A stretch of 64,000 nucleotides of DNA, from the NCBI GenBank assembly GCA_030247885.1, contig JAPDRO010000004.1, positions 434,001 to 498,000 on the forward strand, read 5' to 3'. The first letter of the stretch is position 1. Each line of letters opens with the position of its first letter. A model generated the notes under the pieces. That model saw only the letters and a program-made list of their open reading frames with translations, did not search any database and was not told the DNA's origin. Source of the stretch: Taxawa tesnikishii (nom. ined.). Lineage: Eukaryota; Ascomycota; Dothideomycetes; Dothideales. Shown here one piece after another: positions 14,765 to 51,948 of this stretch. The translations under genes were made by a program, and so were the position numbers.

Positions 14765-15365
14765 ATGACAGTCAAGTGGGGTCCCGTGGAGGATCAGTTC
14801 ATCCTCAATACCATCTTTACCAATCCATCCATCAAGATTGACACGCAACTCGTCGCAAAAGCCGTAGTCGAAACCTGGCGTAAGTCGCTTCCCTTCCTTC
14901 ACTTTGTCCTGCGCTAACAACTCATTTACTCCAGCCGCGAACAAGGAAAAGCCCACTCAACGTGCTGTCTCTGAGCGCCTCGTCAGACTGCGCAAGGCTG
15001 CCGCAACCAGCGTCGCCGGCGGCATGTCCGCCCCCATCGCGTCAACTCCCAAGACGCCTCGTACCACTACCACTACACCAGCCAAGACCCCCAAGTCAGC
15101 CTCGAAGCGCAGGACTCCTGCCTCCGGCAAGAAGCGCAAGGCCAATGACAGTGATGACCACGAAACCGACAGCACCATTGTCAAGAAGGAGCTCAACGAG
15201 CTGGAGGACCCGTTCAACCTTCACCCGACTCTGAGTGAGAGCATGTCGGCCAAGCGTCAGCGCCGGTCGACTTCTGCCGCGGCCCTCAAGTATGCCGAAG
15301 ATGGCGATGAGGGTGATGGAGGCGAGAGCGCGGTATCAGTGTTTGGGGAGGAGGTCGAGGCCTAA
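14765..15365 (+). CDS. Small Myb/SANT-like protein, family member 1
   Basis: Not a named gene. Seen: ATG at 14765; exons 14765-14879 and 14935-15365; 181 aa. Residues 1-60 form a three-helix Myb/SANT-like pattern: a Trp and acidic residues near the start (KWGPVEDQFILNTIF), a middle helix with LVAKAVV, and a basic third helix (RAVSERLVRLRKAA). After it come a Thr/Pro/Lys-rich linker (TPKTP..TPAKTPKSASKRR), a KKRK nuclear-localisation-like block, then IVKKELNELEDPF (a hydrophobic-K-x-E motif before acidic residues) and an acidic end. The same build recurs in seven other loci in this window, most between 28.9 and 46.4 kb. A nuclear DNA- or chromatin-binding role is inferred, not shown. Unlike four other members it lacks the intron before the second helix. 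Confidence 0.8.
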
Positions 15366-28909: not shown

Positions 28910-29414
28910 TCACGCCTCGTCCTCCACAACCTCCGTCTTGACATAGTCGTCATCGTCGTCCTCCTTCTCCGCTTTAGCCGCCTTCTTGCCCTCCTTGGCG
29001 CTATTCTTCGACGGGGTGGCCTCCTCGTCATCGTCGTCGTCGCGGGTATTCGGATCGGCCTTGCGCTTGCGGCCGCCCTTGGATTTGGGAGTCTTTGGAG
29101 CAGCGGCGGCGGCGGCGGCGGCAGCGTTGCCAGCAGTGTCCGTCTTGCCGCCGGCGTCGGCGATCTTCTTCAGAACGGCGCGGGTCATCACCTTCATGCT
29201 CCCGACGCTGGCGGAGCCGAAGGCGGCGCTGGCGGTGTCCCAGTCGACCTGTGATGTTTGCGGTTAGGCGAGGTGAGGGGAAGGGGAAGGTGAGTTGTTG
29301 GGGATCGGAACGTACGCCGGCCATGGGGTTGTCGCTGCATAAGTAGATTGCGAGCAGGCGGTTCTTGTCGTTGTCCGAGAGGACCTCCTTCGCGACGCTG
29401 TAGGAGTATGGCAT
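28910..29414 (-). CDS. Small Myb/SANT-like protein, family member 2
   Basis: Not a named gene. Seen: ATG at 29414; exons 29414-29316 and 29248-28910 (intron 67 nt, phase 0, directly before VDW); 145 aa. The first helix (LSDNDKNRLLAIYL) and second helix (VDWDTASAAFG) are separated by the intron, and the third is MTRAVLKKIADAGGK. It is followed by a long poly-Ala run, then TPKSKGGRKRKAD (basic, AT-hook/NLS-like), an Asp-rich stretch, a second Lys/Ala-rich stretch and the end DYVKTEVVEDEA, with the VKTE motif in an acidic setting. Intron position and phase match members at 30.1, 32.1 and 42.0 kb, so these are true relatives. A nuclear, chromatin-linked role is inferred. Confidence 0.8.
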
Positions 29415-30101
29415 GGTGTTCAGTTCGATACTGGCTGGAAGTTAGCGGCGTTGGAGGAATGAGACGGTGAGGACAACTCCCTCGTGTTTGTTACTGTGGT
29501 GATGTGTGGGTGTTGTGTCGACTCTGCCGTGTAAAGCCTGATGTGGAAAGAGATTGATGAAAAGCGTAAGGAGTTGTTGTGTAAGAAACGGAACGGGTTG
29601 AGGGGAAGGAAGATTATATGGGGGAAAGGCGGACTCACATGCCAGAAGATGAAGCAGCGAGGTGGGAGCAAACTCACTTGTGCTTGGACGAAGCTGAAGC
29701 TTTCGAACGAAGACAAAGATGGAGTGAGCGTGCGGGACGATGCTGGAACTGGGCGGGAACTTCACTTCTCGCTGAACCTACACGGTGTTTTCGATGGACT
29801 CTTGATTTGACGAATAAATGCATGCCTGAATGCCTGTATATGAAGATTTTGGGTGCATTAAACCATCAGATTCTCAATGGCCTGCCTTTTGGAGGGGTAT
29901 CGTGTCCGCCGGACAGCCTGGCGTATGCATTCGGTTAGATCTGAGTGCATGTGTGATAGACACAGAACCTTCTTGCATTCGGGATAGAGCTATGGAGGTG
30001 CTTGTAACGAGGTTCCGGGAGTCCACGATTCTCTCACAACGCTATTACCCTCTGATTGCGGGCCGTCGTGCTAACCCTCTCCCGACATGTCTCCTCTACA
30101 C
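29415..30101. other. Intergenic region between small Myb-like members 2 and 3
   Basis: About 690 bases; promoter of member 2 and 3' end of member 3. No other gene was seen. Confidence 0.45.
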
Positions 30102-30658
30102 TTAAGCCTCCTGCTTGAAGCTGCCTTCACCCACAGCGTTGGAGCGCTTGTGGCGAGGCTTCTTAGCCTTGCTCTCGGTTGAGGCGGGGATAACGGCTGC
30201 GTTGGTAGTGGCGGAAGAAGCAGTATCAGCATCGGCGTTCTCAACGGCAGCAGCGGTGTTGGTCTCGTCACTGTCCTCTTGCTTGACTGGAACGGAGACC
30301 TTGGCAGATTTAGCACCCGACATAGCGGAGGCCTTGCGCTTCTTGCCGACAACCTTGTCTGGCGAGCCAGCTGCGCCAGTGGGAGCGGTGTCGTCATCGC
30401 TATCGGTACTCTCCTTCTCGAGCTTCGCCTTCAGGCGGGTGAAGCGCATACGGGCGGCGGGTGCGGTGGGAGCCTCTTTGTTTGGGATACCAAGGTCGGC
30501 CGCGATTACCTTCCAGTCAATCTTCTCAGTGTTAGCTGTACGTTCGCAGGTCAGACTGCGTGAATAACCCATGAACGTACCTCACCGCCGAGATGCTTGA
30601 TGATGTGGAGCAGGAAACTCATGTTGTCGGCGTCGTTCAGCTGCTGCTTGGGAGCCAT
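30102..30658 (-). CDS. Small Myb/SANT-like protein, family member 3
   Basis: Not a named gene. Seen: ATG at 30658; exons 30658-30581 and about 30521-30102 (intron 30580-30522, phase 0, directly before IDW); 165 aa. First helix LNDADNMSFLLHIIKHL, second IDWKVIAADLGI, third AARMRFTRLKAKLEK. The tail holds GKKRKASAM (basic block), then VPVKQEDSDETN (hydrophobic-K-x-E followed by acidic residues) and the C-terminal GSFKQEA, a second such motif. The 3' splice site is not ideal (ACTGAG or AAG before ATTGAC), so one Lys may be added or lost at the junction. Same strand as member 2 and the same intron position. Antisense frames over it are shadows. Confidence 0.8.
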
Positions 30659-31049
30659 TTTGAACGATTGATGAGGAGTGAGATTCGAAAATCACCGTAG
30701 ATGGAATGAAAGGAAGGATTATAGCAGAAGTGTTGATGCTTGTGGAAGAAATGGAATTGATCTTCTGAAGATGGTGATGATCGGTCTGAGTCAGTCGAAC
30801 AATCTAAAGTGAGCAGAGGCTGTGGGACAGGCAAGTTTCGAGAGTGAGCTTAAGAGTGAGAGACCACTGGCGGTCTGTTTGTTTCCTCAAGCTTCTTCCT
30901 CCCGCTCGAGCTTCTCTTAAACACAATCACCTCCACAACGCGACAACACAATCACCGGTGGTCTTCCTCGTACCACCTAACCTACTCCAACTAGACTACT
31001 GGCGGTGATCTTCACACACTTGATCTCCTCAGCACATTTGTTGTCCACG
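30659..31049. promoter_or_regulatory. Divergent intergenic region between small Myb-like members 3 and 4
   Basis: About 390 bases between two outward-facing family members, so their promoters are shared or adjacent. Confidence 0.5.
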
Positions 31050-31659
31050 ATGGCTGGTTGGACCGACTCTGACGACCGCAAGCTGTTGCTTGCCATCATC
31101 CAAATTCTCTCACCAAGCCCACCAAGCTGGGACGAGGTCGCTGCAAAGACGGGCAAGACTAAGGAAGCTGTTCTGTACGTACCTCTGAATGCTCACCAAT
31201 TCAGTGTGTTCAAAAGGGCATTGTATACCTACAGGAGTACTATCTCAAGGCAGGCCTGCAAGCACTTCAAGATGCCTATTCAACGCATCTGAAGGACCCG
31301 CTCACTTGCCGGGCGTCCAACTGGATGCATTGCTTTCGATATTGCCCTCTCCTAGATCTCATACGTACACATCGCTAACTTTGTATATGCAGCCAGCGCT
31401 ACTAAAAGATCAAGAAGGAGCCCCTCACTGCTTCCGCGGACGATGCTGACGGCGACGACGGAACGCCAGCAGCTGTTCCAGCTCCAAAGAAACGCAACCG
31501 TAAGGCGACCTCGAAGACTGCAGGCAAGGGAAAAGGCAACGGCTCTGAGGACGACAACGGAGAGGAGAAGGCCAAGGCGGCTAGGAAATCTCGCGGCAAG
31601 AAGGTGAAGATGGAGGAGGAAACCTGTTGGAAGAGCGGAGGGCGGAGGATGCTGACTAA
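31050..31659 (+). pseudogene. Small Myb/SANT-like protein, family member 4, damaged or mis-spliced copy
   Basis: Seen: ATG at 31050 opens WTDSDDRKLLLAIIQIL and SWDEVAAKTGKTKEAV, the first two helices in good condition, to a donor at 31175. The expected third helix is at 31392 onward (QRY-stop-KIKKEP), where TAA stands in place of an aromatic codon. The frame after it has the family's full tail: IKKEP, an acidic stretch, PKKRNRKATSK and VKMEEE. Alternative: an acceptor at 31234 gives a short third helix (STISRQACKHFK) and a stop at 31292, a 60-residue protein without a tail. Near the 3' end one added base (about 31619) would give an acidic ending and a stop at 31657-31659; otherwise the frame runs to 31786. 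This is either a decaying copy or a gene with alternative splicing, and the sequence does not decide which. Confidence 0.55.
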
Positions 31660-32124
31660 TCACGGAACCTCACTTCACCTGCTACTCAGCTTCGCCTCAT
31701 CGTTGATGAAACGTGAACCTCATTCATCTCACTCTTCTGTCTACTTCAAAATGCCTAATAGTAAACACGATATCAAGGTTCTTTGAAGGTGTCGGACAAC
31801 GTAATGAAATCCTGATAAGACTAGTTTCATAGTGAAGCTCTACTAATCCCATATACTATACTAAAGTGTACGTTTTGAACAAAAGGTCTGGTATGGATCC
31901 GGTAATGTAGAGTCTCACTTGTTCAAGCTCAAGTTTCCTTTAGAATGCTTATGCCATCACTGTCGCAAAGCTCGTGGTCTGTGCATGTTGTAAGTTCCTT
32001 CAAGCTTGACGTTGTCTACCTTCACATCTGAGTTATTGTTTCCTATCCATCCCACAACGCAACCGCTTCCCCACCATTCTCGATCGATCACATATCCACA
32101 CAACACATAATAGCATCAACAACC
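31660..32124. other. Intergenic region between small Myb-like members 4 and 5
   Basis: AT-richer than its surroundings; no gene was recognised. Confidence 0.4.
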
Positions 32125-32615
32125 ATGCCCAACTGGAAGGAACCTGCCACGCTCGATCGCCTCCTCGCCGCCATCATCGCCGCTAACGGCGGCAGAGTGA
32201 GCCCACCCCGCGTCGTACACGTCACTTCCCATGACTGACCGATGGATACAGGTCGACAACATGGCTGTCGCGCGTTAGTTTGAAGAGAACGTCACCTACG
32301 ACGCGATTGAGAACCGCACCCGCGTCTACAAAAAGCAGGCCAAGGAGCTCGCCGACCAGGCCCAGGCCGAGGGCCGCATGGATAAGGATATGCGCGCTGT
32401 CAAATCCACCAACGGCACCCCACGTAAGCCGCGTACTCCGAAGAAGGACGCTCTTCACGGTGCGTATGTCTCCCTTCGTAGTCACGTCAGGACTAACTGG
32501 TCTAGGCGTTGCCTCCGGCCGTGTCTCGAAGAGGGCTCCGAAGGTCAAAGAAGAGCCAGTCGATGGAGAGATGGGTGATGTCCATGCTGAGGACGACGAC
32601 GAGGGCCTGGCTTGA
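32125..32615 (+). CDS. Small Myb/SANT-like protein, family member 5 (in-frame stop or shifted splice site)
   Basis: Seen: ATG at 32125; exon 1 32125-32196 (PATLDRLLAAIIAANGGR); intron phase 0 at the family position; exon 2 to 32459; exon 3 32506-32615. With the usual acceptor (before 32252) the second helix reads VDNMAVAR followed by TAG at 32276-32278, where relatives would have a codon such as CAG. If that same TAG is used as the splice acceptor, the frame stays open (exon 2 from 32279, FEENVTYDAIENRTRVYKKQ) but the second helix is lost. The tail has PRKPRTPKK (basic), KVKEEPVDGE (hydrophobic-K-x-E) and an acidic end AEDDDEGLA. Its status between functional gene and new pseudogene is open. 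Confidence 0.65.
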
Positions 32616-32909
32616 AAGGGGTTCCTGCCGTGTCGCCACGACAGTAAAGGCGGGCGCTGAGTGATATCCGAAGCCCGTCATGTAATATGCAATGCATTGT
32701 ATGATAGCACGACACAGATGACCACACGGCAAGCATGATTAACGACATGACTTCCTGCTGCACTCGGTTTCTCAACATTTAAAGATGTGCCTGGTTAACT
32801 GTTTCGAAAGTCAACAACGTAACGACGCAAGTGGTCGGTGAGTACGAGGTCACCGCTGAGAGAGAGAGTAGCGCAGGCAGCTGGGAGTACTTCGAAAATT
32901 CTTCGATTA

Positions 32910-35176
32910 TCAATATCGCACAAGCCACCCACTGTATGCAGTTCTAATTCCTCTTAACGCCAACCGCCCAGACCCTTTTCCTGCTTCTTCAAGCCCCGCC
33001 AGGCCGTGGTGTTTCCCTCCGCCCGGATCCAGCAACAGATGCGGCTTGATGAATCCTTCGTCAATCCTGCTAAACATGGTCGCTGCGTCCTCGGTCGTGA
33101 CGTTAAGCAACTGGCTGATCGCGCCTCTGGCCGTAAGCTGTGTCGAAGCTCCTTGTTCTCCGTCCGCCGCTCCGTTCCGCAGTCCGGACGTTGGGTATGG
33201 AGTATCGTCGTCAAGCGCTGACGGTGTGTGCTCAGGCCGCCGCACCGAAGGTGGAAGATCCAGTTCTGCTTCATCATCGGATGTAGAGCCACTGTTCTCA
33301 ACGGAGAGCAGACCTCGTTCTGCTGCTTCCTCCGCAGCGCGCTGTCCGCGGCTGCTGTTCCTCCTGAGCTGTCCATCCGGTCGGATGGGTGGGCTGCCGG
33401 CAACGCTCCCTGTGCTATAAATACCTACTCTGCTGTTGCCTCTAGATCTAGATCTGACGTTGTTCTTGCCCACACTGTCTAAGGTGTAACCGTTCGCGCT
33501 GGGGCGAGGGTTGTGTCCGAATCCGGTCCTGTTCTTGTTGGCGTAAGATCCGCCAGCAACGACCTCGATGTCGAACTCATCATCGCTGTCGATCTCTTCC
33601 ACCACGCCTGTCCGAATTTCGAGGATCTCAAGCATGCGTGCGGTAGTGCCTCCAAAGATGATCACAGTGAGAACGACCACGACCAAAACCGTAGCGCGCA
33701 GAGCGAATCCATTCTGACCCGTGAGTCCTGCTGCCAGTGCAACGCCTACAGCTCCGCGAAGACCGGCCCAGAAAAGCATAGTCTGATGATTCTTCGGGAT
33801 CTCATCTGCAACCTCTCGGCCCCGCTTGTGTGCGCGGTAGCGTATGACTGCGTTGATCGCCGTTGCCAGCGGAAAAACGGCGCAGTAACGGGCAACGCAA
33901 ATTCCTACCACAGTGACCAGGATAAAGAGTGGCTTGTATTCCAGGCCAGCTTCTGTAAACAGAGAAAGTCCGAGGTAGATGAAGATGAAGTTCTCCGACA
34001 ATTGGGCCATGACCTGGAACACGAACTTCGTCGTAAGCTGTGTGCGGCGCGACATGTTGTGGTAAGCATAGTGCTTCATGCATATACCGCAGAAGAGAAG
34101 GGACACGATTCCTGGAACAAGGCGTCAGCGATCATGGGAACGAACTTGGAAGTCTGAGAAGAACAGACGAACCAGACATATGGATTGCGTTCGAGAAGAA
34201 GTAACTTGCGTATGCGATCAGAATGATCAGACAGCTCTCTATCTTTGGAAATCTCCTGACAAGCGTGTATTTCAGGAGCAAACTCGTCCCAATGCCGACG
34301 ACCAGCCCGATGACCAAGCTGCCGAAGAAGACCAGCAAGAAGATGCCAATACTTTCGAACAAGCTCACGATGGTAAGATGGCCTGCTGCAGCTCCCTCTT
34401 TATACTTTTGCGCGGTTTCGAAAAGCACAATGGCGATAGCGTCGTTCAATATGGATTCTCCGAAGATGACCGTGTACAGCTTCGGGTCCACTTTATATGT
34501 GTTGAAGATGGCCAGGATAGTCACGGGGTCGGTGGCGGAGAGGGTCGCGCCAACAGACATGGCTTCGACAAAGGTAATGTCCAGCCCTTCAAGCGGGATT
34601 CGAGTCCAGAGATAGAGGATCACACCGAGAACGACAGCGGAGATGAAGGTGCCGGCAAAGGCGAAGGTAAGGATAGCACCGATGTTGCGGAAGAAGTTAC
34701 TTTGGTGCAATTCGTAGCCAGACGCCAGAATGATAGGCGGTAGAAGCAGGTTGAAGAACATCTGGTAGTCGAAGCTGACCGCACCAAGCACAGATTGCGC
34801 GGCGGTCAACCGCAGTATAAGCCCAACAACCATTCCGGCGAAGATGGAAAGAACCGTTTCATGTACTGCCTGGATCTTTCTGGTTTGGAGGAGGTAGCTG
34901 GTGAAAAGAGCTACTATGAGTAGCATGATAAGGATGAAGAGCGACCATGATGCGAATATCTCCTTCTGACCCGCCTCAGGTTCTGTTATACAATCAGTCT
35001 CTGGTGTAGTTGGAAAAAGGCATCCTGTTCGAGGGTACGATTACTGACCGTCGGGATCGGCATCGGATACTTCTCGCTCTGTAGACGGGACGATGGTCAG
35101 TGTAGGGTCTTTGGCTGGCGCAGGTGTGGTACGTACTTAGCAGCTCGAGAGCCGCTTGTCTGATTAGAGAAGCCAT
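32910..35176 (-). CDS. NHX1: Sodium (cation)/proton exchanger, NHX1/NHE family
   Basis: An endosomal/vacuolar Na+(K+)/H+ antiporter that sets lumenal pH and vesicle traffic (family knowledge). Seen: ATG at 35176; four exons: 35176-35137, 35078-35049, 34982-34173, 34111-32910; 693 aa; exon 2 is only 30 nt. The CPA1 core has about 12 membrane segments and includes FFNLLLPPIILASGY (amiloride-site-like), SATDPVTILAIF and FGESILNDAIAIVLFE with the transport-critical Asn-Asp pair, then ENFIFIYLGLSLF and WAGLRGAVGVALA. A long hydrophilic Ser-rich cytosolic tail follows, from about residue 480. The final 25 residues are uncertain: as written it ends RTAYSGWLVRY, while another frame gives AWRGLKKQEKGLGGWR. 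Flanked on both sides by members of the small Myb-like family or by transporters. Confidence 0.95.
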
Positions 35177-36114
35177 GGGTGAGTTGCAGGATGCGAGGGC
35201 AGATGTCTGCCTCGGGTGCTATGTCTGCATGAAGTCGATATATTTTACGGTTGATGTAGGGTTGAAGGCTGCCTGCCGTGTCGCGGCGGTGCCTGAAAGC
35301 TGCAACGCGACACAAATTACCTGTCACGAGTGTGTGTTCGTGCGACGCTTGTGCAACTTTTGAGCGGGCGGGTGCGCGACCGGGGTGTTCTACGCAGGCG
35401 TGTATATCTCTCTCGCTGTGTAGGCCTTCTCCTTACTCTCCTGCCAACTGGCCGATCTGAGCTCCACCAGCTGTTCGGGGTCCTTGCGGCTGCGGCTGCC
35501 GACCCAAGGCACCTAAGCCCAACTCGGCTAGTGTTCCCCACCGCTTTCGATGCAGGGACGTTTTTGTCTCTCCGCGTTCAAGAGTTCAATCACACGCACG
35601 TCACAGCCCGGCGTAAGGTTCTCGGCTGTGAGGGAAGGAACGTGCAACTGGAAGGCAAAGCAAAGGCACGACCTGACCCTGACCACGACCCCCGACCCCG
35701 ACCCCGACCTCAGCAGAGGCCAGCATCAGGCGCGTTTGCCTTTGCCTTTGCGCTTGCCTTGCTTTTGATTCGCCTCGACCACAAAAATACTTCTGCAGAG
35801 CCGTTCCCAAGTTCTGCTCTTGATCTCTTAACTTCTTTCCCCTTACAAATCACGGACCATGTCCTCCAAACTCTAAATTTCACCGCCTTCCGCTATTCAC
35901 TCCCGCCCAGCTAGCACCTCAACCAAGACACCTCGTGACACACTGCAACCACGCACACCGCGTGAGTGTCTTAAAGGACGACCACGACCACGACCACACT
36001 CAGTCCACGAGATACATCGCCCTTGTCTAGCGCACCACACCCGGCTCCTCTTACATTCTGTACACGCCGCGCCTCCCGTTCAGCCATACCCACCCGAGCT
36101 TCGCTCTACACAAC
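35177..36114. promoter_or_regulatory. Divergent intergenic region between NHX1 and the GPH transporter
   Basis: No gene was seen. It holds two simple-sequence stretches, imperfect GACCCC/GACCCT units (35669-35711) and ACGACC units (35976-35998), and pyrimidine-rich leaders. Confidence 0.5.
35669..35711. repeat. Imperfect GACCCN hexanucleotide repeat
   Basis: Consecutive units GACCCT, GACCAC, GACCCC and variants upstream of the GPH transporter gene. Confidence 0.7.
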
Positions 36115-38412
36115 ATGGACGGTGGAGACGACAACAACACCAACCGGCCTGCTCTGAAACCTGGGGCCCGTATCAAGAAGACGGTCTCCTTCCGCAGACA
36201 GTCTGGTGCTTCCTCGCAGGCTAAATCACTGGATGTGTTCAGAGCGAACAAGTCGTTGGATGGAAAGGGTGCAGAAGAGCAGGACGAATACTCTCCCTTG
36301 ATTGGAAATGGAAACAGACGCTCACCAGATATACCAAAACTGTCAAACTTGTCAACAGCCACGCCTGATGAAGAAGAGTGGGATGACGACCAGGATGAGA
36401 CCAGGAGCAGCTGGTACCTTCTGCTCTTGACTCTAGGCATTGGCGGGTAAGTAGGAGACGCCTGGCCTCCTGGCCGAGTGACACGATTTGAGAACTACAA
36501 ACGGTGCTGACCATCATTGTTTAGTCTGCAAATTGCCTGGTCCGTGGAACTGTCTAATGGATCGGTACGTTAAGCATCCCTTCGAACATACGGGCGCGTG
36601 GACTTATCTTTTGACAGCCATATTTGCTCGGCCTCGGTATCAGCAAGTCCCTGCTTGCCTTTGTATGGATAGCTGGACCGCTGTCTGGTACGCTGGTTCA
36701 GCCCTATGTCGGTATCAAAAGTGACAACTCAAGGTCTAAATGGGGAAAGAGGAGGCCATTCGTTGTTGGTGGTGCCATCGCCACCATCATATCTTTGGTG
36801 GCCCTGGCATGGACGAGGGAGATAATCAGCAACGTCCTGCACGTTTTTGGTGTCGATCGCGAAGCCCCGGCTGTCTATACCGTCGCCATCGTATTCGCGG
36901 TCCTCATGATCTATGTCCTCGACTTCTCGATCAACGTTAGTAAGTACTTACTACGATATCATTTTGCTCTCCAAGTACTATTGCAGTACTGACAGCCCCA
37001 ATAGTTCAAGCCGCTATCCGCGCATTCATTGTCGATAATGCGCCCGCTCACCAGCAGAATGAGGCTAACGCCTGGGCTTCCCGTATGTCCGGCGTTGGCA
37101 ACATCATTGGTTACCTTTCCGGATACGTCGACCTGCCCAAGATCATGCCGTTCTTTGGAGACACTCAGTTCAAGGTTCTTTGCGTCATTGCCTGCCTTGC
37201 ACTTGCCATCACTGTCGGAATCTCCTGCTTTTTCATCACCGAACGGGATCCTCGACTCGAGGGTGAGCCAACGTATCAAGAGGAAGGCGTGCTTGCATTC
37301 TTCAAGAATCTTTTCCGCTCCATGAAACGATTGCCGCCACAAATCAGCAAAGTTTGCATGGTACAATTCTTTGCCTGGATTGGGTGGTTCCCCTTCCTCT
37401 TCTACATCACCACCTATATCGGCGAGATCTATGTGGAGCCCTTCTTTGAGAAGAACCCGCACATGACTCCTCAGGAGATCGACGAGACCTGGGAACGTGC
37501 TACTCGTATCGGGACCTTTGCGCTGCTTGTCTTCGCGATTACAACCTTTGCGTCTTCGGTAGTCCTCCCACTATTTGTGCAACCAATGTTCAAGGCACCA
37601 GCACAGGACCCGGATTGGGTACCGACACCGGGTACTCGTACTCCCCGCACCCCAGGACAGGATATGAGCAACAGCGGGTATTTCTCCTACCAACCTCCTC
37701 GCACTCCTCGGACGCCTGGCGCTCGGACTCCTGGCACACCAGGTGCTCGTACGCCTGGCGGCGGATACCGCACACCTCGCACACCCATGACTCCAGGAGC
37801 TATTCACACCCCGGATACTTCTCATACCACCCCGTCGAGTCTTCCACGAAAGACTACCAAGAGAAGGGTACGGGCGTCATCAGCAGAATTGGCCAGAAGA
37901 TCCCTTCGCCACGCATCCCGGGTTTTACTCTGCGTCGTGCTTGGCTCTTGTCACATCTTCTGTTCGCCATCGCCACCTGGTGCACATTCTTTATCGATGA
38001 CACCAAGACTGCTACAGTCTTGGTTGCATTCATCGGAATCCCCTGGGCAATGACCAACTGGGCTCCATTCGCCATCATCTCAGCCGAAATCAGCAAGCGC
38101 GATGCTATCCGCAGAGGCCAGATGCGTGCTCCACCGACCCGGGACGGAGAGTTGCTCGCTAACGGCGAGGATGAGGCTGCCGACCAGGCTGGTGTCGTGC
38201 TCGGCATCCACAACGTCGCCATTGCAGCGCCTCAAGTCATCGCCACTTTGGTCAGTAGCGTCATCTTCAGGTTTTTGCAGAAGCCCCGTGGAAGCGTGGG
38301 AGACAACAGTGTCGCCTGGGTTTTGAGGTTCGGTGGATGCGCCGCTGTTATCGCAGCTGTCCTCACAGCCAGACTCGAGGACCAGCCGGAAGAGGCGGAC
38401 GAGGAGGACTAG
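36115..38412 (+). CDS. GPH-family sucrose/alpha-glucoside proton symporter (Sut1-like)
   Basis: A sugar:H+ symporter of the plant-SUC/fungal-Sut1 type; S. pombe Sut1 moves maltose and sucrose (family knowledge). Seen: ATG at 36115; exons 36115-36446, 36525-36564, 36618-36939, 37005-38412. An acidic/Ser-rich cytosolic N-tail, then TM1 with LTLGIGGLQIAWSVELSNGS, TM2 LLAFVWIAGPLSG and the loop SKWGKRRPFVVGG, the family signature, then about 12 membrane segments. Between TM8 and TM9 is a Thr-Pro-Gly repeat insertion (about 37615-37830; units such as TPRTPG, ARTPGTPG). One base is missing at its end: CCCC at 37809-37812 should be five, giving GYFSYHPVESSTKDYQEK and the rest of the protein. The exons then sum to 701 codons including the stop. 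The repeat may be a phosphorylation platform; that is inference. Confidence 0.92.
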
Positions 38413-39307
38413 GTGTTATCCTTGCGGGAAGAGCTTTCATCTATTCTAGAAGGCCAGACGAAAGAAAAGGAGATTGCGATAGACACGCCAACAAGGACGA
38501 GATGAGATGCTAGATTGAAGTTTACACGAAAGAAACGTTCCGTGGAAGATTAATGACACGAACGGATGGAACGTTTCTTTGGCGGTATGCTTTCGGGACT
38601 GGGTTTTTCTTAACTATTGTAGCTATTGAGCAAGGCGAATTGGCGGGTTACGGTATCTTTCGTGTCTCTCTCTTGTTTGCATAGGTAGCTTGGACTCAAA
38701 AAGATATTGTCCGGATTGCAAAACATAACATTGCTCTGTCTTTACCCCTCTGAACACCAGCATAATGCCGAGTACTGTCAATGCGGCCCACACATCTTCT
38801 CATTCTTGTCTTTTCTGCCTCACGACGCTCTCGGTGCGGCTTGTGGAAGGTGAAAGAGGATGAGTTGGACGTACATAAATCTTACTCGGAGCCACGTTAG
38901 TACGAGCGGTGAGTGGGAACATGAATTCGAGAACACATCTTCCCCAAGGATAGTACTCAGTAGCCTTTGAACCGACATAGCCCTGGGAGAAGACATCTCG
39001 GACCGTATACCACAGCCTCAACCTTGGAGGCCCTTAGTGTGCTAGCGTGTAAACTACTTGGCTTGGATTATTGCGCCAAGCTTGCCTCAGATGATGTTTA
39101 ATGAGGTTGTTGCTCTTCACCCTTGCAGAACAGTTCCAGCCCTGCGATTCAACCGCGGCCGCAGCCGAGGGCGGTAACAAGCTGCCCGGCAGAAAAAGCC
39201 CAAATCCTGAAATCTTGGCAAACCATCCGGCCTCTTTGCGCGTTTGAACGGAACAACTCAACTCATATTTCAACTCCGATACGCATCCGGAGTACACATT
39301 CCAGATC
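38413..39307. other. Intergenic region between the GPH transporter and NOP2
   Basis: About 900 bases, 3' region of the transporter and promoter of NOP2. No gene was recognised. Confidence 0.45.
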
Positions 39308-41545
39308 ATGGCTCCTAGCAGGCGCATGCAAAAGCAGGGCGTTCCTGAGCCCTTGAACGAATCACTCATCACGAAGAAGAGGAAGCTCGCGCAACCGCCT
39401 CCCGCCGACACCGCTGCCGCCAGCAAGAAGAGGAGGACCTCTTCCGAAGGACCTTCAAAGGCTGCCACAAAGGGAAGCAAAGCCAAGAACTCAGCAGCGA
39501 CGAAGTCCACAAAAGGATCCTTTGCAAGCAATGGAAAGGTACAAAAGAGCAAAGCCAAGCCGGTGAAGCAACTGCTAGAGAGCGGATCGGAAGAGGAGGA
39601 TGAAGATGACATTCCTGACGTCGCGGACCTGGACGACGAGGACGTGGACGATGAAGACGTTGCAGTAGGTGGCCTGGATGCTTTGGACACGGATGATGAC
39701 GAGCTACCGGAGGACGACGATTTCGTGGATTCGGACGACCCAGACGTGCAGCGCGCAATGTGGTCAGAAGATGAAGATGCTTCAGATGCGGAGGAAGTGC
39801 TCACAGCGGCGAATATCGCCGGTCTGTCTGGACGTTTGGATGCTCAAGCCGCCCAAGAGGCCGAAGAAGCCCAAGCCGAACTCGAGGACGCCGCACTTCA
39901 AACCAACATTGCAGCGGATATCCCTGACGATGACGAGAAGCCTTCAGCAAACCTTGCGCCGGATCTTCAGCTTCTTCGTACCCGAATCAACGAGACAACT
40001 CGCGTTCTCACTGACTTCAGCAAGCTGGCAGACCCGTCCAAATCCCGAGCTGAATACATTTCGCGGCTGTTGGAGGATATTTGCGCCTACTACGGCTACT
40101 CTGAATTCTTAGCCGACAAGTTATGGCACCTTTTCCCACCTGATGAAGCCCTCGCTTTCTTCGAGGCAAACGAAACTCCTCGTCCAGTCGTCCTCCGCAC
40201 AAACACCCTGCGTACACACCGTCGTGATCTTGCGCATGCCCTCATCAACCGTGGTGTAACCCTCGAGCCGGTTGGCAAATGGTCAAAAGTCGGATTACAA
40301 GTGTTCGAGTCTCAGGTTCCGCTTGGTGCTACGCCTGAATATCTGGCTGGGCACTACATTCTGCAAGCCGCTTCTTCCTTCTTGCCCGTCATGGCTCTTG
40401 CTCCTCAAGAGGGCGAAAGATGCCTGGATATGGCTGCTGCTCCCGGAGGAAAGACCACGCACATGGCTGCGTTGATGCGGAATACGGGTGTTATCTTCGC
40501 TAATGATGCGAACAAGGACCGTGCAAAGGCCTTGATTGGTAATATTCACCGTTTGGGAGTCAAAAACACCATCGTGACCAACTACTCTGCACTTGAGTAC
40601 CCGAGAGTTATGGGTGGGTTTGACCGTATCTTGCTCGACGCGCCATGCTCTGGAACTGGTGTCATTGCAAAGGATGCAAGTGTCAAGACGAACAAGACCG
40701 AAGCCGATTTCCTCCGGTTGCCGCATCTGCAGAAACAGTTGCTGCTCGCAGCTGTGGACTCTGTGGACCATGCCTCCAAGACAGGTGGTTACATCGTCTA
40801 CTCCACTTGTTCCGTCACTGTGGAAGAGAACGAGCAGGTCGTGCAGTACGTTCTGAACAAGCGCCCCAACATCAAGCTCGTTCCCACCGGCCTTGTCTTC
40901 GGTAAGGAGGGTTTCACTTCTTTCAGAGGCAAGAAGTTCCACCCTTCGTTGAAGGAGACGAGACGCTACTACCCTCATGCTTTCAACGTGGATGGTTTCT
41001 TCGTTGCTAAGTTCAAGAAAACCGGACCCACGCCTGCAGGCGCGGTCAGGGCACAGGGTCAAGAAGGCCTGTCAGCTGGCGTCAGGGCTAAGGACGCGGT
41101 TGACGGTGGCGAGGAGGAGCATGTCGATAAGACGCCCGTTGGCGAGGAGCCTGAAGATGATTTCGGAGGCTGGGACGATGAACAGGATGAAGTCTACATT
41201 GAACGCGCGAAGAAAGCGGCGTTGAGGAGGAAGGGCGTGGATCCGAAGGGTCTGAAAGTCAAGACCAACGGAAAAGCGAAAAAGGGAGAGGATGATGCGG
41301 TTGATGGCGCGGTAAAGGTACCTAAGGTCACGGAGGAGAAGGTTGATGGCGCCAGTGGCGCCACCGACCTGGCAAATAAGAAGGTGGGGAAAGACTCAAA
41401 GGTCGCGAAAAAGCCGACGCAGAATGGTGTGAGCGAGGTTGGTGGGCATGCACAGGGTACGGCGACACAAGTGCAGAGCAAGAAGGAGAAGAGGAAGTTC
41501 AGTCAGGCAGGGAAGGACGTGAAGGCGAAGACGAAGGCTAGGTAG
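39308..41545 (+). CDS. NOP2: 25S rRNA (cytosine-C5)-methyltransferase NOP2
   Basis: A nucleolar NOL1/NOP2/NSUN methyltransferase that makes m5C in the large rRNA and is required for 60S assembly (family knowledge). Seen: single exon, ATG at 39308, 745 aa. The N-terminal 220 residues are Lys-rich then very acidic, as usual. The catalytic half starts near DFSKLADPSKSRAEYISRL and contains the PUA-like/RNA-binding part, SAM-binding DMAAAPGGKTTHMAAL (about residue 373), motif IV DAPCSGTGVIAKD and motif VI IVYSTCSVTVEENE with the catalytic Cys, then YYPHAFNVDGFFVAKFKK. The C-terminal tail (about 580-745) is Lys/Gly/Asp-rich and low-complexity. The frame is intact. Confidence 0.97.
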   Translation: MAPSRRMQKQGVPEPLNESLITKKRKLAQPPPADTAAASKKRRTSSEGPSKAATKGSKAKNSAATKSTKGSFASNGKVQKSKAKPVKQLLESGSEEEDEDDIPDVADLDDEDVDDEDVAVGGLDALDTDDDELPEDDDFVDSDDPDVQRAMWSEDEDASDAEEVLTAANIAGLSGRLDAQAAQEAEEAQAELEDAALQTNIAADIPDDDEKPSANLAPDLQLLRTRINETTRVLTDFSKLADPSKSRAEYISRLLEDICAYYGYSEFLADKLWHLFPPDEALAFFEANETPRPVVLRTNTLRTHRRDLAHALINRGVTLEPVGKWSKVGLQVFESQVPLGATPEYLAGHYILQAASSFLPVMALAPQEGERCLDMAAAPGGKTTHMAALMRNTGVIFANDANKDRAKALIGNIHRLGVKNTIVTNYSALEYPRVMGGFDRILLDAPCSGTGVIAKDASVKTNKTEADFLRLPHLQKQLLLAAVDSVDHASKTGGYIVYSTCSVTVEENEQVVQYVLNKRPNIKLVPTGLVFGKEGFTSFRGKKFHPSLKETRRYYPHAFNVDGFFVAKFKKTGPTPAGAVRAQGQEGLSAGVRAKDAVDGGEEEHVDKTPVGEEPEDDFGGWDDEQDEVYIERAKKAALRRKGVDPKGLKVKTNGKAKKGEDDAVDGAVKVPKVTEEKVDGASGATDLANKKVGKDSKVAKKPTQNGVSEVGGHAQGTATQVQSKKEKRKFSQAGKDVKAKTKAR

Positions 41546-41972
41546 ATGGATAGGTATTTCGTTTCTTTGTATACAGATATCCCTCTGAAGTCAAGCGCAT
41601 TCATGTCTACGTTTTGCTCTACTAATATAGCAAGAAACTTCTGGATTCCTGATGAGTTTGTATTGAGTTGTTACAGGCCAGCAGCGTTAGCAGGGATGCC
41701 AGTTCTTCAGGACAGATGCCACGGGTGAACGATCTTTGCGGCGCCGCAGCAGCAAAATCTATTTCACTTGAACATTTTCGAGTGAACTGTGGCTCTCTTC
41801 ATCAACCCGGACCCTGGCCGCAGGCTGCAGCTATCTGAACTGTTTCTACCGCTCTCTCCTCTCCTTCCACCTACCTTTTCTCTTCCGTGTTCGGATTCCG
41901 ATTGCAACAACACATCCCACCCATACCAACCAAGACACAACAACCACACCACCACAAAAGCTTGCAGTCACA
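41546..41972. other. Intergenic region between NOP2 and small Myb-like member 6
   Basis: About 430 bases; no gene was seen. Confidence 0.45.
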
Positions 41973-42505
41973 ATGCCACCCAAGACACCAGCTCTCACCG
42001 CGGAGGACAAAGTTGCTCTCCTCATCGCCTGCATCAAGTACTCGGAAGGTGGCAAGGTACTTTCACCGCCCCCACGGTCTGTCCAGTACGCTCTAACAAC
42101 CGCAGATCAACTGGGCCAGAGTCGCGGAGGAATGCGGCATCACCACTCCAGGGGCCGCGTACGTCACCACCCATTTCTTCTCTGCATTTCACATGCCTTG
42201 CGATATGCTAACACTGGCAAAGCGCCAAGCGCTACGAGCGCATCCTGAAGGCTGCGGGTGTCACGCCCTCTGCTGTCCGCGCCAACAACGGCGGTGCCAA
42301 GTCCGCTGGCGCTGTGGATGAGAACGACGAGGACGGTTCTGCACCAACTCCGAAGAAGGGCAAGGCTGCCCCAAAGAAGGGCAACAAAAAGCGCAAGGTC
42401 GAGGAGGACGATGATGGGAACGATGTTGAGGACGCTGGAGGAGCCGCGGGGGCTGAGGTTGACACAATCACAGTCAAGGGAGAGGGAGATGACGAGACTG
42501 CTTAG
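41973..42505 (+). CDS. Small Myb/SANT-like protein, family member 6
   Basis: Not a named gene, but the best-preserved member. Seen: ATG at 41973; exons 41973-42056, 42106-42158 and 42223-42505; 139 aa. First helix TAEDKVALLIACIKY, then GGK with the phase-0 intron, INWARVAEECGI (Trp-containing second helix), and AAAKRYERILKAAGV (third, recognition-type helix). The middle exon is 53 nt. The tail has KKGNKKRKVEEDDD (NLS-like) and ITVKGEGDDETA (hydrophobic-K-x-E before acidic residues). The family type is a Myb/SANT-like three-helix fold; binding to DNA or histone tails is inferred from the recognition-helix composition and basic tail. Confidence 0.85.
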
Positions 42506-43501
42506 GTGTTGACACGGCATCGCGTCCTTTAGACGATTGATGCGTCGAAGAAAGACATGATATGCATTGGCACGGCGGGGGCGGGTCGGGCGGCGTACGG
42601 CGTTGATGTTGCATGAGGGACCAGGTGTTCACAACGATGTGCACTTCGGATAGTCTCATGAACTTGCTTCAATGATCATCTACAATCATTCATGTTCCAC
42701 TGCAATTGCATGTGCATGACTTGGTGTCTTGTTGATGGAGCACCGAAGCGTGGGGTCGACTTCTGCTGTTCCGCGAACCGTTGCCTCGGGTCGTACAAGG
42801 ACAGGGTCCTTGCCAAGCTTTAACCTCACTTCACTTCAGCTTTCCTCCTCATTCCCATTACTCCTCTCGGTTACAACGAACTGTCTGCGGTCTTAGGCTT
42901 GAACCATCGAACGGCTAGACGAGTAGTTGATGCATATCACAATGCAAGGGTTACAGTAAACGTTGGACGCTGTGCTGCCGTGAACCCGGCCACTGTTGGG
43001 GAAGACGGCGGCAATGCGCGACTGGCAGAGTAAGGCAAGTACAAACACGAGCTCTAGACAAAACAACACTGTGCATGTTGATAGCTGCATGGCCGTTCTG
43101 AGGCATCGTTTGGGAACGACTGATTGCAGCATTGTTGGCCGCTCATCGGACGAGTTGCTCCTCCGAAGGGACAGCTCCTAGGATGGTGACGAGGATACAC
43201 ACGAAACTATCTCACCCACATGTTGTGGTGAGCAGTCCGCTGTTAAGGCAGGTGGCTTCTCGGGAACATTCATATTCGTGAGGGTCTCGCTATCCCCTCA
43301 GTGAGCTTTGAAGACCCGACAAGGCTTTCCACGTCAAGCTTCACCCAATCACGCGGACTACCCTCGCCTTAGAGCCATCCTAGTTCAAACTTGCGGGGCT
43401 TTCTTCGTATCAAGAACCCCTCCACTTCTCTCACAGCACAATCATTTCCCAACAAACATACACAATTCACCACGGGATCTACAACAGCAAACACCGCAAC
43501 C
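42506..43501. other. Intergenic region between small Myb-like members 6 and 7
   Basis: About 1 kb with no recognised gene or repeat. Confidence 0.45.
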
Positions 43502-43969
43502 ATGCCTTCAAAGACCTGGGCTCCAGAGGATGATCGTACCATTCTCATCACGCTTCTCGAGACTCAGAACATCCCACTGAATACCGCCCTCCTCACCGTT
43601 CTCGCGGAGAGATTGAGCACAGACACCATCCCGGTCACGGCTGAGGCTGTCAAGCACCGCATTCGAAACCTGAAGAAGATGGCGCAGGAGAGTGGCGGGC
43701 AAGGCGCTTCACTCGCAAATATTGAGGTTTCAGCTGACTTCGTATAGATCGAACCCTGGCGCTGAGGGTAAGCCCAAGGCCACGTCCCGCAAAAGAAGGC
43801 TGGTGATGACGCCGACGGAGAGTCTCCCAGCAAGAAGCGCAAGACCTCGGCCAAGAGGGGAAAGGGAGGCAAGGCGGTTGCGGAGGAAGAGGATGATAAC
43901 GATGATGACTATGAGGAAGGGGGCGTGAAGGAGGGTATTAAGAAGGAGCAGATTGATGGGGACGATTGA
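43502..43969 (+). CDS. Small Myb/SANT-like protein, family member 7 (GC-AG intron)
   Basis: Not a named gene. Seen: ATG at 43502; exon 1 43502-43698; exon 2 43748-43969. The 49-nt intron begins GCAAGG and ends TATAG with a CTGAC branch site, so it is a GC-AG intron, and it restores SGGSNPGAEGKPK. Domain: TWAPEDDRTILITLL, a middle helix with TVLAERL, and AEAVKHRIRNLKKMAQ. One base is missing in the tail: AAAA at 43791-43794 should be five, giving KKKAGDDADGESPSKKRKTS, then the acidic stretch and GIKKEQIDGDD (hydrophobic-K-x-E). With it the gene is exactly 139 residues plus the stop. As written, the frame ends in an Arg/Met-rich artefact. Confidence 0.78.
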
Positions 43970-44708
43970 ACGTCCTCAAAGATCCAAGGCAGGTCCACAG
44001 TATGCTGTCACGGTGTGCAGTAAGGTAGTTGCAGGTGGGCGGTTTCCTTCTGATGTTTCCTTGAGCATCGTTGCCCGGTCAAAAAGAATGCATGACATCA
44101 CTGCATCTGCATAGGAGCTGTACCTGCTCTATCCCCCTATGTCAATTCTTTACATGATCCATACCTTGACCTGTCTCGTTCCTGTTCATCCCCTCCTACG
44201 TACAAGAGCTTTGTCGCTGGTCTTCTCGAGATGTCTCCAAGTTCTTTTCGCAATCCCTCCATGTCTTCTGATCACAGCCAACGTCACATGCAAGCGCTTC
44301 GCGACCTTCCCACCGCAATTATCTAATCTCGTTGCGTCGAGTTCAAGGGCATTTGTAAGAGAACCCTGATTGTTAGAGTTTGGTGGCGCCTGTCGAGAAC
44401 CATCCCCTCGGGACTTAATCATTCACAACAAGATCCTTAGCGCGCATGTGCCTTCGAACAAGCGCAATCCAGAGATACCTGAAACAACGCCTTTCCCAAT
44501 CTGGCAATGCCAAGATCGCGCCGCTCGAGGAGCTCTACAAACTACGATCTCCAGCCAGCCTCTCCAATTCTTTTGACAACACCACTACCGTCTGCTGTCT
44601 ACCTTTTCCTTCTTTTCTAGCTTGTTCTTTTCCTCTCTAATAACATCCATCTTACAGGTTGTCTACACATCAACAACAAGAGAAGACGTTGCTACCGATA
44701 ACCCAAGT
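43970..44708. other. Intergenic region between small Myb-like members 7 and 8
   Basis: About 740 bases; no gene was recognised. Confidence 0.45.
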
Positions 44709-46400
44709 ATGGAGATGCAAGAAACTCCGAGAAAGAAACGCAAGTCTTGTGCTGGTCGTAAGCTTGTGCGCTGGGATGGTAAGCAGCGTTGTTCTCCCTC
44801 ATCTCATTGCAGCTCGGCTGACATCTTCCAGTCGAGGTCGACCAACACTTGCTGCTTGCACTCGATTATGAGTGCATCCAGCGCGGCATCATCCTTCCTT
44901 TTGAGGAAGCGATGCAACATATCCAGCCTGGCTGCACCGGAGAAGCGGCTCGCCAGCACCTCGTCAAAGTTCGCCGCGCTCGTATGGCCGCTGGACAACA
45001 GGTTCCTCCAGAGCCCAAGAACCGTCGTAAGGCCAAGACTGGACCTAGCGGAACCCCTTCAACCAATGAGAGTGACAAGATCGATGGTGGGTGCGGATCT
45101 TCATCTGTTCGGACACAGCTAAAACTTTGCAGTCGCCAACGCTGTTGCCTCGCGTCTCATCTACACCCCTGTCAAGAAGCAGAAGACCTCGCGTCTGGCT
45201 CTTAACACTCCGCAGACTTTAGTAGACGACGCCGAAACTTCTGCTGCACTTGCGACTCCAACTGCCGCCGAGACCAAGAAGCAGCTTCCAATCAAGTTCA
45301 AGCTAAACACCAACAAGCAGTCAGTTCCGCTCGCGCGTGGCCGCAAGTCTGTCATCAAGATCAAGAAGGAGGATGATGAGTCAGAGGAGTATGCCCCAGA
45401 CCCAGACGCCGGCGGATCTGACGACGAGTGGACTCCTTCGGGCAACAACACGAACAAGCGTAAGAGAGGTTCCAAGCGCACCAGCACTCGTGTCAGCAGC
45501 ATTGACACCGATACGGAGCCTCAGAACGACATGTTCAAGGTGCCAGATCTTGTCCGTGTCGTGACTGAAGTCGCTGCCGAAGAGCAGGGCAAGATCGTCA
45601 GGAACGATGAACTCATCGAGGAGTCCACCGCGGACGACGAGTCTGGTAACGATGAGGACTTGGTCTACACGGGCAAGCCTGGCCAGAGAGGCTACGAAAG
45701 CGCTGAAGTCGACGACAACGGAGAGGACAGCGGTGACAGCGGTGACAGCGTCGAGCAGGACGTCAAGGACAACATCATGCCACCACCATCCATGGCAGCC
45801 TCGCAGTCCTCCCGGGAGAACGGTGGCGTCGTGGTTCCCAACCACACCATGCCACACGACTACGGCTTGGACCCTGGTCCTAATTTCGGCAGCTTCAACA
45901 TGGGCTTCAGCTTCGACGATCCCTTCGTCGACACCAAGTTCACCAACAATGCCCGCAACAATAGCTTCACTGACACCAAGTTCTCCGACAACTCTCAAGA
46001 CGCCAGCCAGGACAATCTCAACAGCTTCAGGGACGGCTACGAGTCCGATTTTGCCAACAACGTCGCCATGGGAACGGGCAACATGACCATGCAGGCATCC
46101 GGCAATAACACTGCTCTGAACACAGGAACGAACACCCCATTCGAGTGCGCCTCGTTCGATACCGGCTTCGGCAACTACAACTACAATTTCGGCGCCAACG
46201 CTCCAGCCACCGGCATTGCAAACATGGGCGGCTACACCACCCTTGACACCTCCGGCAGCTCTCTAGGCCAGCAGCCAAGCTGGTTCACCGGTGGCTTTGC
46301 AGACGCCTCTGGCTCGTTGCTGGGAGGCATTCACGGCTTCGCGGTCCACGGCTCGGATGCCTTCTTCGGCGGAGCTGGTGGAGATAGCGATCTCAACTGA
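44709..46400 (+). CDS. Long Myb/SANT-like protein with N/G-rich tail, family member 8
   Basis: Not a named gene. Seen: ATG at 44709; exons 44709-44778, 44832-45086 and 45133-46400; 530 aa, three to four times the length of its relatives. The first exon has a basic leader ([13 protein letters not shown]). The three-helix domain follows: [48 protein letters not shown]. Then a basic region, [13 protein letters not shown] (hydrophobic-K-x-E before acid), NKRKRGSKR, an acidic central part with a GDS repeat, and a C-terminal 200 residues rich in Asn, Gly, Phe and Ser (for example [11 protein letters not shown], twice DTKF), resembling activation-domain or prion-like low-complexity sequence. A transcription-factor role is inferred. 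The frame is intact. Confidence 0.82.
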
Positions 46401-51201: not shown

Positions 51202-51948
51202 ATGGGCTCTGGAAGAAGGCAAGTACAGGACTGCAAAAGCAGAGGAAACGGGGTCTTTGAGGACAATGATGGGTCTACACAGCATTTGGAGTGCAGTTTC
51301 ATCAAGATCGTGGGTGGAAGGGATTCGTCGAGTGATTCTGGAATTGGTACAACATGCAACTCACAGGAAATAAGACAGACAGAAGGAAAGAGGCACTGAC
51401 ATCAGATTTGTAGTGGTCAGAAAGTTCTTTGGGTTTCATGAGGGCTGTTTCTTCCGCTATACACGCAGGTCAAAGTTCATCAACATCAACTTATCAAGTC
51501 AACGCAGACCTGAATGTTCTGCAACGGATATTCAGTCTGCGATTGGAACAGTACCGCTGATGGTCGTTCATGGCTCGCAGAAGACCTCATCAAAGATTTT
51601 TTGGTAAATGTGTTAGCACACTGGATGGTTTCACCTGTGAGTGATTGATGTTGAGACGTCAAGTGAGAAGATGAAGTGGTTGCTGAGAAGGGAGGAGAGT
51701 TCTGGATAGACGGAGATTGCGGAGTTGATGTGCGGCAGTTGCCGTTCCGACAACGTCCAAGCTTCAAATGCTTCTCGAAAGTCTTCGAACCTTTACCTCG
51801 GGGGTCACTAAAGACAACTTTTGCGTCTTCTCCAATTCCCATATCATTCTCCATCCCTCCCCCATCTTGTCCTCTATACCCTGCTACGAGTCTTGCTTTT
51901 TGGAGTCAGGAGCACTGGTTTCTTTTGAAGTTCATCCCACACATCACA
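51202..51948. promoter_or_regulatory. Intergenic region / HSP60 promoter
   Basis: Contains a heat-shock-element-like array at 51771-51790; no gene was seen. Confidence 0.5.
51771..51790 (+). promoter_or_regulatory. Heat shock element in the HSP60 promoter
   Basis: Four adjacent pentamers, cTTCt cGAAa gTCTt cGAAc; three match the alternating nTTCn/nGAAn Hsf1 consensus exactly and one is a single swap off. It lies about 160 bp upstream of the HSP60 start codon, a suitable place and gene for Hsf1 control. Confidence 0.75.

What the first reader, a model, noticed from the sequence alone, without database searches (positions are those of the whole stretch)
28910..46400. Local expansion of a small Myb/SANT-like protein family
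Seven loci here (28.9, 30.1, 31.0, 32.1, 42.0, 43.5, 44.7 kb), plus one at 14.8 kb, share an N-terminal three-helix domain (acidic/Trp start, aliphatic first helix, IDW/INW/VDW-type second helix, basic third helix), a KKRK-type block and an acidic tail. They lie on both strands and are interleaved with housekeeping genes (NHX1, the GPH transporter, NOP2). I know no named family for them. This is the best candidate for an undescribed system in the window: a lineage-specific set of small chromatin or DNA-binding proteins.
Basis: partly seen in the sequence, partly recalled or inferred. Interest (0 to 1): 0.8.

Follow-up and report, generated by a model that had tools for sequence, protein, structure and literature searches.

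The report
Clustered fungal Myb-like nuclear protein genes
A fungal stretch of DNA holds a cluster of old, strongly diverged genes for mostly small Myb-like proteins, some of a kind that databases already name without a known role; all of them carry the same predicted SUMO-attachment signal in their tails, and two look broken.

Summary
The loci are real: I built spliced models for all eight. Six read as intact genes. Those at 31.0 and 32.1 kb each carry an in-frame stop inside the domain and are probably pseudogenes. The 44.7 kb gene encodes 530 aa, so it is not small.

'No named family' is wrong for the core: 42.0 (E 3e-21) and 30.1 (1e-14) match Pfam PF22980 Myb_DNA-bind_8; 31.0 falls just under its cut-off. 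The other five do not match it. Shared introns tie 28.9, 30.1, 31.0, 32.1 and 42.0 together; 14.8 and 43.5 form a second pair; 44.7 is a distant third type. No pair shows gene-wide DNA similarity: an old, diverged cluster, not a recent expansion.

New here: each tail has one SUMO-acceptor consensus [VI]KxE, 8 of 8; the next-best of 24 arrangements of the same letters reaches 3 of 8.

Best reading: nuclear single-Myb DNA or chromatin binders with a SUMO-site tail. Binding and SUMOylation are inferred. Copy number and lineage-specificity were not testable: no genome is held, and a search for 42.0 in viral and prokaryote contigs found nothing.

The parts
14765..15365 (+). m14.8, 181 aa; exons 14765-14879, 14935-15365. 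Domain, KKRK, SUMO consensus VKKE at 15180-15191
   Evidence: pairs with m43.5 at z 8.4; no Pfam Myb match
28910..29414 (-). m28.9, 145 aa; exons 29414-29316, 29248-28910; intron phase 0 just before VDW; RKRK; VKTE 10 residues from the C end (28942-28931)
   Evidence: no Myb Pfam match; linked by intron position and z 3.8 to m31.0; not recovered by leave-one-out profile
30102..30658 (-). m30.1, 165 aa; exons 30658-30581, 30521-30102; intron phase 0 just before IDW; KKRK; VKQEDSDE (VKQE at 30287-30276)
   Evidence: PF22980 E 1.1e-14, 53.9 bits, cut-off 27
31050..31786 (+). m31.0, interrupted: exons 31050-31174, 31393-31786; in-frame TAA at 31403-31405 in helix 3; unusual 218-nt intron; VKME at 31604-31615; coding composition fades after VKMEEE
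   Evidence: PF22980 E 5.4e-06, 26.1 bits, just under cut-off 27, read with X at the stop
32125..32615 (+). m32.1, interrupted: exons 32125-32196, 32252-32459, 32506-32615; in-frame TAG at 32276-32278 in helix 2; intron phase 0 just before VDN; VKEEP (VKEE at 32544-32555)
   Evidence: no Pfam match; z 5.1 to m43.5; not recovered by leave-one-out profile
41973..42505 (+). m42.0, 139 aa; exons 41973-42056, 42106-42158, 42223-42505; intron 1 phase 0 just before INW; intron 2 phase 2 in helix 3, as in m31.0; KKRK; VKGE 10 residues from the C end (42473-42484)
   Evidence: PF22980 E 3e-21, 74.9 bits
43502..43969 (+). m43.5, 132 aa; domain uninterrupted in exon 43502-43726; exon 2 43796-43969 (donor uncertain: 43727 or 43742); KKRK; IKKE 10 residues from the C end (43937-43948)
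   Evidence: three helices predicted at pLDDT 56
44709..46400 (+). m44.7, 530 aa; exons 44709-44778, 44832-45086, 45133-46400; N-terminal KKRK, helical domain, long low-complexity tail with [10 protein letters not shown] (IKKE at 45360-45371)
   Evidence: no Pfam Myb match; z 6.3 to m31.0; not recovered by leave-one-out profile

Best explanation
The cluster holds old paralogues of a fungal single-repeat Myb/SANT-like family (Pfam PF22980 Myb_DNA-bind_8 plus relatives too diverged for that model). Each intact product is probably a nuclear protein. Its N-terminal three-helix domain would contact DNA or a nucleosome through the basic third helix; the basic block would serve as a nuclear localisation signal and add DNA affinity; and the charged tail would present one SUMO-acceptor lysine (psi-K-x-E) that tunes its activity or partners. 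Two members, 31.0 and 32.1, are decaying or conditionally expressed copies, so the family is turning over. Shown here: gene models (by splice consensus, no transcripts), family match of the core, shared introns, tail motif, in-frame stops. Inferred: fold of the diverged members, DNA binding, nuclear location, SUMOylation, regulatory role.
For: PF22980 matches for 42.0 and 30.1 and a borderline match for 31.0. A phase-0 intron sits just before the hydrophobic residue of [IV]-[DN] at the start of helix 2 in 28.9, 30.1, 32.1 and 42.0, and a phase-2 intron sits at the same helix-3 residue in 31.0 and 42.0. All eight connected at z >= 3.8; 5 of 8 recovered by leave-one-out. Basic block in 7 of 8 tails. 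[VI]KxE in 8 of 8 tails against 0-3 of 8 for the other 23 arrangements; shuffle probability for all eight 6e-10 (whole tail) to 1.6e-8 (local blocks of 8); for six tails, leaving out 31.0 and 44.7, 1e-7. Control: 3 sites in 8145 aa of 16 other window ORFs. The motif lies exactly 10 residues from the C end in 28.9, 42.0 and 43.5. After seven designed-protein entries, the first natural protein in the PDB listing for the core profile is the Myb protein CEF1, at only E 0.092.
Against: The SUMO motif was noticed after looking, so its shuffle probability is optimistic; the 16 control ORFs are mostly folded proteins, not charged tails, so they are a weak control. No SUMO assay exists. Five of eight domains have no PF22980 match, and no Myb match above cut-off, in Pfam; the only sub-threshold match of the 28.9 and 44.7 domains is to a non-Myb family each (E 0.083 and 0.12). 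16 of 28 pairs have z below 3; 3 of 8 are missed by leave-one-out. Profile comparison of the core five with the other three gave only 17.5% probability (E 0.0014). AlphaFold models are low confidence (pLDDT 56, pTM 0.31) with no Foldseek hit. The core profile's top PDB hits are designed repeat proteins, matched over helices 2-3 only, which says little; single m42.0 found only chance hits. No expression or binding data.
Confidence: 0.6

Rival explanations
1. Two or three unrelated families of small nuclear proteins that happen to sit together: PF22980-type (28.9, 30.1, 31.0, 32.1, 42.0), a 14.8/43.5 pair, and 44.7. Similarity between the groups is convergence of short amphipathic helices and charged tails.
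For: Introns are shared only inside the first group. Leave-one-out profiles miss 28.9, 32.1 and 44.7. Group-to-group profile probability is 17.5%. 16 of 28 pairs have z below 3.
Against: Cross-group links at z 4.3-6.3 (31.0-44.7, 32.1-43.5, 14.8-30.1, 31.0-43.5). The [VI]KxE motif at the same distance from the C end in 28.9 and 42.0 (group one) and 43.5 (group two), and 8 of 8 overall. Close clustering.
Confidence: 0.25
2. The domain works as a protein-interaction SANT-like module (histone tail or complex subunit) and does not bind DNA itself; the basic block only imports the protein.
For: Acidic residues around helix 1 and in the tail (sequence). Some Myb-related domains are known not to bind DNA directly (general knowledge; also said in the listed abstract start of PMC2572630).
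Against: Helix 3 is basic in the PF22980 members (AKRYERILK, ARMRFTRLK) and Pfam names the family as DNA-binding, but that name is not a test.
Confidence: 0.3
3. The cluster is mostly relics: old duplicates losing function, with tails kept open only by GC-rich composition.
For: Two of eight carry in-frame stops; 31.0 also loses coding composition after VKMEEE.
Against: The other six are open from start to stop with clean introns (43.5 has an uncertain donor). Third-position GC stays high in these six (0.65-0.86). The tail motif is kept in all eight.
Confidence: 0.12

Closest known systems
Pfam PF22980 Myb_DNA-bind_8
   Same: Domain of m42.0 and m30.1 matches over nearly the whole model (positions 2-49 of 50); m31.0 matches just under cut-off.
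   Different: 28.9, 32.1, 14.8, 43.5 and 44.7 do not match. The tail with [VI]KxE lies outside the 50-residue model. Two searches of the paper library for its name, accession and recalled InterPro number found no paper.
Classical Myb/SANT repeats (PF00249, PF13921; e.g. CEF1)
   Same: Three-helix layout, Trp near the start of helix 1 in some members, basic third helix; weak sub-threshold matches (m31.0 E 0.04-0.08, m42.0 to PF13921 E 0.13; CEF1 E 0.092).
   Different: A single short repeat without the regular tryptophan triad (recalled feature); far below cut-off.
Trihelix / Myb_DNA-bind_4 (PF13837)
   Same: m43.5 helices 2-3, E 0.06.
   Different: Below cut-off (14.2 of 27 bits); partial match only.
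Fusarium MYT1-3 and Cochliobolus BZcon1 (fungal Myb regulators; seen in search listings and abstract starts only)
   Same: Ascomycete Myb-like regulators.
   Different: MYT3 has two Myb domains according to its abstract start; these are single-domain proteins, and no relationship was tested.

Membership tests
PF22980 Myb_DNA-bind_8 | Score above the curated cut-off of 27 bits | tested here: met
   m42.0 74.9 bits, m30.1 53.9 bits: 2 of 8 only
PF22980 Myb_DNA-bind_8 (m31.0) | Score above 27 bits | tested here: inconclusive
   26.1 bits, read with X at the in-frame stop; 19 bits for the alternative splice form
PF22980 Myb_DNA-bind_8 (m14.8, m28.9, m32.1, m43.5, m44.7) | Score above 27 bits | tested here: not met
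   PF22980 not listed with max E 10 for the whole protein or the domain alone; HMMER's filters drop most matches above about 0.1
One family of eight | Each member found by a profile of the other seven | tested here: inconclusive
   5 of 8 found; 28.9, 32.1 and 44.7 not; shared introns link 28.9 and 32.1 to the core
Myb/SANT fold | Three-helix fold superposable on solved Myb/SANT domains | tested here: inconclusive
   2 of 8 folded (43.5, 44.7): three helices in both, pLDDT 56, no Foldseek match
DNA-binding Myb protein | Binds DNA | not testable with these tools
   Needs gel shift or SELEX
SUMO substrate | psi-K-x-E acceptor consensus | tested here: met
   8 of 8 tails; consensus form [IVL]KxE as in the abstract start of PMC3395311
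SUMO substrate | SUMO conjugated to that lysine | not testable with these tools
   Needs a conjugation assay or proteomics

The most novel reading that the evidence does not exclude
A clustered, fast-diverging set of SUMO-regulated single-Myb chromatin proteins in which domains turn over while the tail SUMO site is held fixed, and in which the two stop-bearing members (31.0, 32.1) are not dead but expressed only when the stop is bypassed, by RNA editing of the kind known in ascomycete fruiting bodies or by an alternative splice site that skips the stop and yields a domain-less protein.
Probability: 0.08. Interest if true: 0.7.

Novelty: new member of a known kind. Interest (0 to 1): 0.4.

Why it matters
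PF22980 is named in Pfam, but two searches of the paper library found no paper naming it. The finding gives a concrete hypothesis for what such proteins are: Myb-type nuclear proteins carrying a conserved SUMO-acceptor tail. One proteomics or localisation experiment could test it. The cluster also offers a natural series for asking how single-Myb proteins diverge, and whether in-frame stops in such genes are decay or recoding.

Tried and rejected
Rejected: 'undescribed family' for the core (PF22980). Rejected: recent tandem expansion. DNA comparison of the eight loci (blastn, word 7, E up to 1) gave only matches of 12-34 nt and one of 46 nt, some of them at the basic-block codons.

Considered and left open: alternative splice forms avoiding the stops. 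In 32.1 a downstream AG keeps the frame but deletes helix 2. In 31.0 both splice sites must shift, and the product loses part of helix 3 and drops from 26.1 to 19 bits against PF22980. The canonical sites, each preceded by a branch-like CTAAC or CTGAC, keep the stop in frame.

Led nowhere: relatives of 42.0 in viral contigs and genome contigs, and of the neighbouring NOP2-type gene in viral contigs; these collections are viral and prokaryote, so absence says nothing, and the other seven members were not sought. Single-sequence AlphaFold models were too weak for fold search. PDB searches with single m42.0 and profile A2 gave nothing relevant. Literature: zero papers for PF22980 or Myb_DNA-bind_8, for the recalled InterPro number IPR054505 and for SANT-like with Dothideomycetes. 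Broader searches (the last had 720 papers, 25 listed) were seen as listings only, so a paper on this family under another name could be missed. The Ascochyta rabiei MYB paper PMC5470089 (passages) showed nothing on this family in the passages seen. The DTHCT match of m28.9 (E 3e-5, 25 bits against a cut-off of 24.9) was set aside as a match to the charged low-complexity tail.

The clustering estimate uses assumed genome-wide copy numbers (50-400) and genome sizes (30-40 Mb), not measured ones.

Full report
WHAT IS THERE. The window reads as a filamentous-fungus contig (inferred from its short introns and genes). Pfam confirms a forkhead factor, a NAP, a Na/H exchanger, an RsmB/F-type methyltransferase (NOP2-like) and a cpn60 among ten ORFs scanned; the transporter next to them scores 29.2 bits against a cut-off of 33.4 for MFS_1. 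From the six-frame readings and the DNA I built spliced models for the eight loci: 14.8 (+, 181 aa), 28.9 (-, 145 aa), 30.1 (-, 165 aa), 31.0 (+, interrupted), 32.1 (+, interrupted), 42.0 (+, 139 aa), 43.5 (+, 132 aa) and 44.7 (+, 530 aa). The models rest on splice consensus and homology, not on transcripts; the 43.5 intron has an uncertain donor. A profile built from the eight finds, in the 25 best six-frame ORF pieces printed, 13 pieces of these same loci at E 3.2e-4 or better and two more at E 1.9 and 9; they match by construction. The best piece elsewhere has E 0.6, against 0.91 for the best reversed decoy. So no ninth member was found.

ARE THEY RELATED. Pfam answers for the core: m42.0 matches PF22980 Myb_DNA-bind_8 at 3e-21 and m30.1 at 1.1e-14; m31.0 reaches 26.1 bits against a cut-off of 27; the other five do not match, nor do their domains alone. 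Gene structure gives independent evidence. In 28.9, 30.1, 32.1 and 42.0 a phase-0 intron falls exactly before the hydrophobic residue that opens helix 2 (G|VDW, E|IDW, R|VDN, K|INW), and 31.0 shares with 42.0 a phase-2 intron at the same residue of helix 3. These five form one group. The pair 14.8/43.5 is linked by BLAST at E about 1e-6 in a database of just these eight domains and by z 8.4. The 44.7 domain is linked mainly to 31.0 (z 6.3) and 14.8 (z 4.5). All eight connect at z >= 3.8, but 16 of 28 pairs have z below 3. Leave-one-out profiles recover 5 of 8, and the group-to-group profile comparison is inconclusive at 17.5%. I therefore accept one family for five members, consider 14.8/43.5 likely, and 44.7 possible.

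TWO ARE INTERRUPTED. With canonical splice sites, 31.0 has TAA at 31403-31405 (residue 46, helix 3) and 32.1 has TAG at 32276-32278 (residue 33, helix 2). Beyond the stop the 32.1 frame keeps coding-like GC by codon position (0.68/0.42/0.72, a count that includes a few codons past the final stop) and ends in an acidic tail like the others; 31.0 keeps it as far as VKMEEE (0.60/0.49/0.67) and then loses it (0.42/0.45/0.51). Pseudogenes are the simple reading for both, best supported for 31.0. A sequencing error cannot be excluded. In ascomycetes, A-to-I editing is known to correct premature stops in pseudogenes, and automatic annotation then invents introns around the stop (PMC6160140, passages seen). 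The alternative AG in 32.1 is just such a place, so this stays open as the novel case, with low probability; those passages name no Dothideomycete among the edited species.

THE TAIL. A sharper shared feature is the SUMO-acceptor consensus. Each of the eight tails contains one [VI]KxE site (m31.0 has another inside helix 3, left out of the count). Whole-tail shuffles give a chance per tail of 0.05-0.10 and 6e-10 for all eight (in which the m31.0 tail still included the helix-3 site); without 31.0 and 44.7 it is 6 of 6 at 1e-7. Block shuffles that keep local composition give 1.6e-8 to 1e-9. Of the 24 orders of the same four symbols (some nearly redundant) only the SUMO order reaches 8 of 8; the next reaches 3 of 8. 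Sixteen other long ORFs of the window, stop to stop, two of them overlapping in different frames and most of them folded proteins, hold 3 sites in 8145 residues. In 28.9, 42.0 and 43.5 the site lies exactly 10 residues from the C end, and in 30.1 (VKQEDSDE) and 44.7 ([10 protein letters not shown]) acidic residues follow, as in the acidic-extended SUMO motif described in the abstract start of PMC5727262. The motif was noticed after the fact, so these probabilities are optimistic, but the arrangement control does not depend on composition.

MECHANISM. Most likely these are nuclear proteins: a single Myb-like domain contacts DNA or nucleosomes, a basic block imports the protein and adds affinity, and the tail lysine is a regulated SUMO site. 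The family match of the core, the introns and the motif are shown. Binding, location and SUMOylation are inferred. The main rivals are a protein-binding SANT-like role, and separate families thrown together.

FOLD TESTS. Both models show three helices (8-21, 26-39, 47-63; and 4-16, 23-28, 36-52) but at pLDDT 56 and pTM 0.31 without an alignment, and Foldseek finds nothing in the PDB. This is compatible with the reading but not evidence for it. The core profile against PDB sequences hits designed repeat proteins over helices 2-3 (E down to 5.8e-9, composition-like) and then, as first natural protein, CEF1 at 0.092.

EXPANSION. The seven lie within 17.5 kb in two groups. DNA matches between loci are short, 12-34 nt and one of 46 nt, and identity of the other core domains to 42.0 is 18-33%. 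The duplications are therefore old. With assumed totals of up to 400 copies in 30-40 Mb, seven in 17.5 kb anywhere would be expected about 1e-5 times or less under random scatter, but the true total is unknown because no genome is held.

NOVELTY. A known Pfam kind without a paper found, with diverged relatives next to it and one new feature, the shared SUMO consensus. I found no paper in the library naming PF22980, Myb_DNA-bind_8 or IPR054505 (the last number is recalled); the library lacks most subscription papers.

Noticed in passing
31050-31786 and 32125-32615: Two neighbouring genes each have a single in-frame stop inside the domain, with a downstream AG that could splice past it while keeping the frame (in 31.0 only if the donor shifts too).
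   Followed up: partly
tails of all eight loci, e.g. 42473-42484, 43937-43948, 28931-28942: SUMO-acceptor consensus [VI]KxE in every tail, three of them exactly 10 residues from the C end.
   Followed up: partly
10943-12496 (-): Gene for a Peptidase family C78 protein (PF07910, E 2e-47), the family of Ufm1-specific proteases (recalled).
   Followed up: no
50285-51373 (+): IBR half-RING domain (PF01485, E 1e-8): a probable RBR-type ubiquitin ligase gene.
   Followed up: no
28910-29248 (-), m28.9 tail: Tail scores just above the cut-off for the DTHCT region (PF08070, 25 against 24.9 bits), probably composition only.
   Followed up: no
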